Origin: Filosporella fistucella
Lineage: Eukaryota > Ascomycota > Leotiomycetes > Helotiales
NCBI GenBank assembly: GCA_030077755.1
Contig: JAQJZZ010000014.1
Span: forward strand, 1,426,001-1,490,000
Length of the DNA: 64,000 nt
Direction of reading: 5' to 3'
Within the stretch, counting starts at the first letter, position 1, and each line of letters begins with the position of its first letter. The notes under the pieces were generated by a model. It did not search any database and was not told where the DNA came from. It was given only the letters and a program-made list of their open reading frames with translations. Below, one piece after another: positions 8,534 through 9,725 of the stretch. The position numbers were made by a program, and so were the translations under genes.

Positions 8534-9725
8534 ATGCGTTCTTCTACAGCTTCCTTGATTTTGGGATTTTGCGCCTTTGCAGCGGTGCAGAGCATGCCCG
8601 TGGGCAATTCAGCCATTGTTGCTCGCTCTAGCTCACTCGTTCCTGCAATTGCAGCAAGAGGCGCCCATGACTTCGAGTATGATGCTGAGGGTAACGAGAT
8701 CGAAAAGAGAGAACCAAAGAAAAAAGGAAAGAAGGCTAAGAAAGCAAAGAGAGGGGCACATGACTTTGAGTACGATGCTGAAGGAAACGAGATTGAGAAG
8801 AGGGGAGCTCATGATTTTGAGTATGATGCTAATGGCAATGAGATTGAGAAGAGAGGAGCTCATGGTGTGTATAACACATGTAGTGTGGGTGTGAGGAAGC
8901 CCGCTAATCATATCAACAGACTTCGAGTATGATGCCGAAGGTAATGAGATTGAAAAGAGGGAGCCAAAAAAGAAAGGAAAGAAGGCCAAAAAGGCCAAGA
9001 GAGGCGCACATGACTTTGAGTATGATGCTGAAGGAAACGAGATTGAGAAGAGGGGAGCTCATGATTTTGAGTATGATGCTGATGGCAATGAGATTGAGAA
9101 GAGAGGAGCTCATGGTGTGTATAACACATGTAGTGTGGGTGTGAGGAAGCCCGCTAATCATATCAACAGACTTCGAGTATGATGCCGAAGGTAATGAGAT
9201 TGAAAAGAGGGAGCCAAAGAAGAAAGGAAAGAAGGCCAAAAAGGCCAAGAGAGGCGCACATGACTTTGAATATGATGCAGAAGGGAATGAAATCGAGAAA
9301 CGCGGCGCCCATGGTATGTAGTCAGATTTCATATTTTACGAAGCAGAACAACGACTGAGTAGAAAAGATTTTGAGTACGATGCCGAGGGTAACGAAATTG
9401 AGAAAAGAGGTGCTCATGGTATGTTGTTAGGGCATCCAGATAAAATTTTATGAGCTAATGTAAAACGCAGATTTCGAATATGATATCGAAGGGAATGAGA
9501 TTGAGAAGAGAGGTGCACATGGTTGGTTCATCTTTTGGTATTTTGATTCTGTGCCAGGCTAATCAGACTTTCATCTAGACTTCGAATATGATGCCGAAGG
9601 AAACGAAATCGAGAAGAGAGGCGCACACGGTTCGCTCATTTCTGCTTCGTTGTTGTAGCCCTACTCTTACTTACTCCTCTTCAGATTTTGAATATGATAG
9701 TGAAGGCAATGAGATTGAAAAATGA
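8534..9725 (+). CDS. Secreted Kex2-processed repeat peptide precursor
   Basis: Not matched to a named family. Seven exons (8534-8864, 8920-9114, 9170-9313, 9368-9418, 9471-9521, 9579-9629, 9685-9725) total 864 bases and encode 287 residues. An N-terminal signal peptide (about residues 1-20, ending near AAVQS) and a short pro-region up to AIAAR are followed by twelve tandem copies of GAHDFEYDAEGNEIEKR. Each copy ends in KR, the Kex2 protease signature, except the last, which stops after EIEK. Units 1, 4 and 7 carry an extra basic linker, EPKKKGKKAKKAKR. Copies vary only slightly (DANGNE, DADGNE, DIEGNE, DSEGNE). Every intron interrupts the first Asp codon of a unit in phase 1. Predicted product after Kex2 cutting and carboxypeptidase trimming: a 15-residue acidic peptide containing one Tyr and one Phe. 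The layout resembles kexin-processed secreted proteins and fungal RiPP or pheromone precursors; neither core nor neighbours match known ones. Confidence 0.85.
8670..9313 (+). repeat. 250-base tandem duplication including an intron
   Basis: Block 8670-8919 is followed by a second copy at 8920-9169 and a partial third from 9170. The period is exactly 250 bases. Copies one and two include the same 55-base intron (8865-8919 and 9115-9169), identical in every base I compared, while coding parts differ at a few mostly synonymous sites. The first 100 bases or so of copies two and three differ at about one base. This is an internal duplication within the repeat precursor gene. Confidence 0.9.

What the first reader, a model, noticed from the sequence alone, without database searches (positions are those of the whole stretch)
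8534..9725. Undescribed secreted precursor with twelve Kex2-released copies of an acidic peptide
Seen: a signal peptide, a short pro-region and twelve copies of a 17-residue unit with consensus GAHDFEYDAEGNEIEKR, each ending in a KR dipeptide. Known: Kex2 cuts after KR, and precursors of this design give fungal alpha-type pheromones, dikaritin-type RiPPs and kexin-processed repeat peptides. Inferred: the cell releases about twelve molecules of a 15-residue acidic peptide per precursor. The core matches no pheromone or RiPP core I know. It has one Tyr and one Phe, as needed by UstYa-type oxidative crosslinking, but no UstYa-like gene lies in the window.
Basis: partly seen in the sequence, partly recalled or inferred. 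Interest (0 to 1): 0.9.

Follow-up and report, generated by a model that had tools for sequence, protein, structure and literature searches.

The report
Fungal precursor releasing repeated acidic peptides
A fungal gene encodes a secreted chain holding twelve near-identical short acidic peptides, plus three short lysine-rich ones, that a standard cutting enzyme should release; it belongs to a family not named in the papers searched, of a kind already known to be common in fungi.

Summary
Synonymous sites between units are saturated (pS 0.89) while protein change is nearly absent (pN 0.028), so the peptide looks selected. Relatives in Mollisia scopiformis, Phialocephala subalpina and metagenome fragments share the signal peptide, the core [FW]xYDAxGNEIE and often the basic spacer. 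[quoted passage not shown] The nearest UstYa match is about 159 kb away, recognisable neighbours are mostly housekeeping genes, and the genome has a separate canonical alpha-pheromone precursor, so a clustered dikaritin or the mating pheromone is disfavoured. Most likely: linear, unmodified acidic peptides (and basic ones) acting outside the cell; target unknown. A lead: the same core sits in an otherwise unrelated secreted protein of two Coleophoma species. New member of a known kind; expression and cutting not shown.

The parts
8534..9725 (+). KEP gene, coding span; exons 8534-8864, 8920-9114, 9170-9313, 9368-9418, 9471-9521, 9579-9629, 9685-9725
   Evidence: Open spliced frame of 287 aa plus stop; all internal exons are multiples of three
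8534..8593 (+). Signal peptide MRSSTASLILGFCAFAAVQS (cleavage point inferred)
   Evidence: Form of the sequence, and a matching N-terminus in 24 of 30 relatives examined
8594..8659 (+). Pro-region with monobasic sites IVAR and IAAR
   Evidence: many relatives also have an [AS]R or KR before the first unit, others have no pro-region
8660..8710 (+). Unit 1 GAHDFEYDAEGNEIEKR
8711..8752 (+). Basic spacer 1 EPKKKGKKAKKAKR
8753..8854 (+). Units 2 and 3
8855..8960 (+). Unit 4, split by intron 1 (8865-8919)
8961..9002 (+). Basic spacer 2 EPKKKGKKAKKAKR
9003..9104 (+). Units 5 and 6
9105..9210 (+). Unit 7, split by intron 2 (9115-9169), identical to intron 1
9211..9252 (+). Basic spacer 3 EPKKKGKKAKKAKR
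9253..9303 (+). Unit 8
9304..9408 (+). Unit 9, split by intron 3 (9314-9367)
9409..9511 (+). Unit 10 (variant DIEGNE), split by intron 4 (9419-9470)
9512..9619 (+). Unit 11, split by intron 5 (9522-9578)
9620..9722 (+). Unit 12 (variant DSEGNE, ends EIEK), split by intron 6 (9630-9684); stop 9723-9725

Best explanation
This is a Kex2-processed repeat protein (KEP) of a probably helotialean fungus. The chain enters the secretory pathway; Golgi kexin cuts after each of 14 KR sites; a Kex1-type carboxypeptidase trims KR, giving up to twelve 15-residue acidic peptides (mostly GAHDFEYDAEGNEIE, calculated charge about -6) and three 12-residue basic peptides (EPKKKGKKAKKA, about +6). A Ste13-type dipeptidyl aminopeptidase may shorten them to HDFEYDAEGNEIE and KKKGKKAKKA. 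The peptides are most likely linear and unmodified and act outside the cell, most likely in dealings with other organisms. Shown here: the sequence, the repeat array, the selection pattern, the relatives, and kexin P-domain and DPPIV_N-domain matches in the genome. Inferred: splicing, secretion, cutting, trimming and role. Kex1 was not searched for.
For: Architecture: signal-like N-terminus, 12 units, 14 KR sites, no Cys after the signal peptide and no N-glycosylation sequon. Peptide-level selection: pS 0.89 against pN 0.028 over 66 unit pairs; residue changes only at positions 9-10; KR kept in all 11 units that are followed by more sequence despite synonymous changes such as AGA to CGC. Relatives keep core and cleavage site: 59 of 83 matched units end KR or RR and 69 of 83 have Arg at P1. 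Kexin P-domain in the genome, DPPIV_N-domain genes. No confident fold for exon 1: mean pLDDT 57.7, pTM 0.17. Linear KEP peptides have been detected in mushrooms (PMC9769878, abstract, introduction and discussion read).
Against: No RNA or peptide evidence. Unit 1 follows a monobasic site and unit 12 lacks R. In some relatives the separators are AR, SR, ER, TR or QR, not dibasic (10 of 83), and 14 of 83 have no Arg at P1, partly in broken gene models. X-Ala/X-Pro after [KR]R holds for 14 of 14 window sites (only two contexts, repeated) but only 23 of 84 in relatives, so Ste13 trimming is weakly supported. No function is indicated by any search.
Confidence: 0.7

Rival explanations
1. A dikaritin-like RiPP: the released core is oxidatively cross-linked at Tyr or Phe by a UstYa (DUF3328) enzyme encoded elsewhere in the genome.
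For: Each core has one Tyr and one Phe (Trp replaces Phe in 14 of 83 units of relatives). The genome has 27 exon-level UstYa matches. The Coleophoma protein sharing the core has weak matches to three Pfam names, RHS_repeat (24.3 bits), Fibrinogen_BP (13.9) and ATP1G1_PLM_MAT8 (8.0), that are also listed with genus Coleophoma for KEP type G-5/P-1 in PMC7329392, where 16 of 35 members have a DUF3328 gene nearby. That the Coleophoma protein belongs to that type is my guess.
Against: No UstYa match in the window; nearest on C13 are about 159 kb and 462 kb away, whereas the published average distance is 3.09 genes (PMC7329392). Recognisable neighbours are mostly housekeeping genes.
Confidence: 0.12
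2. An uncut repetitive surface or wall protein, in which acidic units and basic spacers pair or bind wall material; the KR sites are incidental. The RHS/YD-like score would reflect repeated small beta-hairpins.
For: RHS_repeat scores 73 bits against a cut-off of 22 over the whole protein; the low-confidence model has two-residue strand pairs around the DAEGN turn in two units and one-residue bridges in the third; some relatives have non-dibasic separators.
Against: KR is kept despite synonymous change; no overall fold, pTM 0.17 (exon 1 only); the RHS match is short and the bacterial RHS hits are weak (E 4e-11 or worse, 23-35% identity for most).
Confidence: 0.08
3. A secreted copper or nickel chelator: kexin exposes a free N-terminal Gly-Ala-His, the form of an ATCUN metal-binding motif (recalled knowledge, not from a call), next to acidic residues.
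For: GAH follows the cut site in units 2-12, and GAH is kept in all 12 units despite synonymous changes; five relatives have GTH or GSH before DFEY.
Against: 24 of 29 relatives lack G-x-HDFEY; Ste13-type trimming would remove GA; a three-term search for ATCUN with fungal secreted peptides found 0 papers.
Confidence: 0.05
4. The alpha-type mating pheromone.
For: Same precursor plan; 14 of 14 KR sites are followed by X-Ala or X-Pro.
Against: The same genome has a canonical precursor on C9 with repeated RCGYPGQPCGK cores, KR or RR sites and strings of X-Ala/X-Pro dipeptides. The window core lacks the two cysteines.
Confidence: 0.02

Closest known systems
Kex2-processed repeat proteins (KEPs; PMC6339444 and PMC7329392)
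   Same: Signal-like N-terminus, at least three near-identical units of at least 8 residues separated by KR; unit length in the most common published class of 9-24 residues.
   Different: Two oppositely charged repeat types (in PMC6339444, 79 of 1193 KEPs have more than one motif type); units split by phase-1 introns; core not among the conserved motifs named in the Results text of PMC6339444. The supplementary lists of both surveys were not read.
Dikaritin RiPP precursors (ustiloxin, phomopsin, asperipin)
   Same: Secreted repeat precursor with Tyr-containing cores between KR sites.
   Different: No UstYa match within about 159 kb; recognisable neighbours mostly housekeeping.
Ascomycete alpha-pheromone precursors
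   Same: Secreted, kexin sites, X-Ala/X-Pro after each cut.
   Different: Core has no Cys and no GQPC; a canonical precursor exists elsewhere in the genome.
CSEP0039-like secreted proteins (name as given by sources)
   Same: In two Coleophoma species this scaffold carries one and four copies of TEPFTYDAEGNE[IV]EKR, close to the window core.
   Different: Apart from the core the scaffold looks unrelated by eye; 118 of 120 listed members lack the core, as do the three copies found in this genome.
RHS/YD-repeat proteins
   Same: YDxxGN motif; Pfam score above cut-off.
   Different: Short 17-residue units with KR sites, no confident fold; similarity probably short-motif only.

Membership tests
KEP | Signal peptide for secretion | tested here: inconclusive
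   Form of the N-terminus and its likeness in 24 of 30 relatives; no signal-peptide program was available
KEP | At least 3 tandem repeats of at least 8 residues between Kex2 sites (PMC7329392) | tested here: met
   12 units, 14 KR sites
KEP | Repeats occupy at least 15% of the protein (PMC6339444) | tested here: met
   12 units of about 17 residues in 287
KEP | Peptides actually released by kexin | not testable with these tools
   Kexin P-domain present in the genome; no proteomics
Dikaritin RiPP | UstYa (DUF3328) gene near the precursor | tested here: not met
   None in the window; nearest on the contig about 159 kb away
Dikaritin RiPP | Cyclised or oxidised core | not testable with these tools
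   Needs mass spectrometry
Alpha pheromone | Cys-containing W/R-C...GQ.C core typical of Leotiomycetes and Sordariomycetes | tested here: not met
   No Cys in any unit; canonical gene on C9 instead
RHS/YD-repeat protein | Profile match above the curated cut-off | tested here: met
   73 bits against 22
RHS/YD-repeat protein | Folded beta-repeat shell | tested here: inconclusive
   Low-confidence model of exon 1 only, pTM 0.17

The most novel reading that the evidence does not exclude
The unit is a portable peptide cassette. In this window it is a symmetric 51-nt phase-1 exon that can be duplicated or skipped without breaking the frame, and a near-identical core appears in an otherwise unrelated secreted scaffold in two Coleophoma species (one and four copies) but in none of the 118 other listed relatives of that scaffold. 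Fungi may thus move and re-dose a kexin-released peptide between precursors by exon shuffling, with splicing setting the number of copies.
Probability: 0.2. Interest if true: 0.7.

Novelty: new member of a known kind. Interest (0 to 1): 0.45.

Why it matters
It outlines an unnamed, probably helotialean family of secreted repeat precursors with a well conserved signal peptide, a strongly selected acidic core and a recurrent basic companion. Because copies can be split by introns, relatives appear in databases as truncated or frame-shifted proteins, and surveys that start from annotated proteins may miss such genes. The exact peptide masses make release directly testable, and the Coleophoma case makes movement of a peptide cassette between precursors testable.

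Tried and rejected
Alpha pheromone: two DNA patterns gave 4 hits and 0 hits; in reading frame none of the 4 lay in a repeat precursor. A protein-style query then found the genuine precursor on C9. Both patterns required Trp before the first Cys, whereas the real core has Arg, which is why they missed it.

Paralogues: two core queries found only this locus in the genome (first-look candidates only, so a distant copy could be missed). RHS membership was considered because of the Pfam score and set aside as short-motif similarity. Literature searches with no result: ATCUN with two other terms, KEX2 with 'repeat protein' and Helotiales, CSEP0039. Searches for Botrytis KEPs, Phialocephala with KEX2 and unclustered UstYa were seen as listings only, and no further paper was opened from them. 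The structure was low-confidence, so no fold search was run. The organism was not identified; the helotialean placement rests on named homologues and on a scaffold protein whose open frame is 60-70% identical to Diplocarpon, Acephala, Phialocephala and Cadophora proteins.

Corrections to my notes: the idea note says 117 of 119 scaffold relatives lack the core; the right count is 118 of 120, the query included. The same note lists GEH in P0037; that copy is cut off before DFEY is complete and is not in the count.

Full report
Place and gene. The window is contig C13:1426001-1490000 of an unnamed 45.8-Mb genome in 19 contigs. The gene runs 8534-9725 on the + strand. Twelve core matches are found; reading them as one chain requires six introns of 52-57 nt, each splitting the Asp codon after GAH, so all are phase 1. 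Exons are 331, 195, 144, 51, 51, 51 and 41 nt; all internal ones are multiples of three, so skipping any one keeps the frame. Introns 1 and 2 are identical and lie in a duplicated 250-bp block. No other intron pair exceeds the best of 100 shuffles; introns 5 and 6 equal it at 0.60. Two donors are unusual, and there is no RNA evidence.

Protein. The predicted 287 residues comprise a signal-like N-terminus, a pro-region with IVAR and IAAR, twelve units and three lysine-rich spacers. After the signal peptide there is no Cys, and there is no N-glycosylation sequon. All 14 KR sites are followed by GA (11) or EP (3), which fits the X-Ala/X-Pro rule for Ste13-type trimming; but these are two contexts repeated, and in relatives only 23 of 84 [KR]R sites fit.

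Selection. Over 66 unit pairs (first 16 codons) pS is 0.89 and pN 0.028. For units 1 and 8-12 pS is 1.07 (saturated; a value above 1 is an artefact of the counting) and pN 0.029. Pairs are not independent and some units are recent duplicates. Still, residue changes occur only at positions 9 and 10 while codons differ widely, so the peptide, including GAH and KR, appears to be held by selection.

Relatives. One search gave 7 hits at E<=0.001, an alignment search 64 at E<=0.01; in both only the roughly 8000 candidates sharing most words were scored. I read all 7 and 27 more; most of the unread ones carry RHS-type Pfam labels. The fungal-looking set includes Mollisia scopiformis, Phialocephala subalpina and metagenome open frames. 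I examined 30 relatives, one of them the Coleophoma protein; 27 of the 30 yielded 83 units with a pattern that itself fixes Tyr, Asp, Gly and an F or W start. In the free positions N follows G in 79, then E in 82, then I, in 72; 51 units end KR and 8 RR, 10 have another residue before R, and 14 have no R at P1. The signal-peptide pattern is found in 24 of 30. In 29 relatives (Coleophoma left out) a basic spacer, some copies truncated, occurs in 20 and G-x-HDFEY in 5. Several open frames seem to run into an intron after DFE or KKAKK (by eye), so intron positions may differ from those in the window gene.

A second scaffold. The Coleophoma cylindrospora hit carries four TEPFTYDAEGNE[IV]EKR copies in a protein family with 735 hits at E<=0.001, of which the best 120 were listed. 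Of those 120, only the two Coleophoma proteins carry YDxxG[ND] (119 scanned plus the query). A member of the window family, metagenome protein P0019, has TEPFEYDAEGNEVEKR. The window's own genome has scaffold relatives on C16 and C13 without the core in the stretches read. This suggests that the unit has moved between precursors, but I could not read Coleophoma DNA, and convergence is not excluded.

Processing genes and context. The genome has a kexin P-domain match on C2 and DPPIV_N matches at two loci; Kex1 was not searched. UstYa gives 27 exon-level matches, none in the window, nearest on C13 about 159 kb and 462 kb away. Pfam scans covered 40 of 68 listed open-frame segments. Matches were a K+ transporter, KRI1, a Ras-family GTPase, FIT, GST, SAP18, PRP4-like, an RsmB/F-NSUN5-type methyltransferase, an MFS transporter, DUF3602, MJ1316, DEDDh_C and Ku domains; many segments had none. 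No tyrosinase or UstYa was among them. A canonical alpha-pheromone precursor with RCGYPGQPCGK repeats lies on C9.

Structure. A model of exon 1 with 15 aligned sequences has mean pLDDT 57.7 and pTM 0.17; apart from the N-terminal helix it shows only two-residue strand pairs or single bridges around the turn of each unit. This fits a flexible precursor but does not prove it.

Literature. Six core strings occur in 0 papers, four locus names of relatives or scaffold proteins in 0. PMC6339444 (abstract, Results, sections 17 and 24 read) and PMC7329392 (abstract, sections 6, 7 and 13, and passages read) describe KEPs; the latter counts 7878 in 1345 of 1461 strains, 2560 of them without homologues, 22% with a DUF3328 gene nearby. 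PMC9769878 (abstract, introduction and discussion read) detected linear KEP peptides and saw no phenotype in knockouts of 6 KEPs. Weak Pfam names of the Coleophoma protein coincide with the row for KEP type G-5/P-1, so part of this family may already sit, unnamed, in that survey's tables, which I could not read.

Verdict. A real, selected KEP gene in a family that appears unnamed in what I could search; new member of a known kind. The role of the peptides is unknown. The strongest open question is whether the cassette moves between scaffolds.

Noticed in passing
L021 (G000:C9:6023512-6024225): Canonical alpha-pheromone-type precursor with repeated RCGYPGQPCGK cores, KR or RR sites and X-Ala/X-Pro dipeptides; one unit differs (RCNLVGGACYE).
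   Followed up: partly
P0003 and P0066 (Coleophoma cylindrospora and C. crateriformis): The window-like core TEPFTYDAEGNE[IV]EKR in four and one copies inside a CSEP0039-like secreted scaffold that otherwise lacks it.
   Followed up: partly
P0067 (Phlyctema vagabunda): The same scaffold carries a different acidic repeat (ELTxEEL-type) at about the place where Coleophoma has the YDAEGNE copies (by eye).
   Followed up: no
G000:C16:2086194-2087019; C13:3273348-3273866; C13:3286248-3287032: Three scaffold-family genes in the window's genome, without the YDxxGNE core in the stretches read.
   Followed up: partly
P0001 (Mollisia scopiformis LY89DRAFT_729759): The database protein looks frame-shifted in the middle, as if an intron-split repeat gene had been mis-modelled (by eye).
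   Followed up: no
window 18641-21409 and 43189-45618: Long open frames (923 and 810 codons, + strand) without a Pfam match at E<=0.001.
   Followed up: no
G000, for example C18:398451-400335 and C9:6112655-6115675: 27 exon-level UstYa matches, some close together, so the genome probably has dikaritin-type clusters elsewhere.
   Followed up: no
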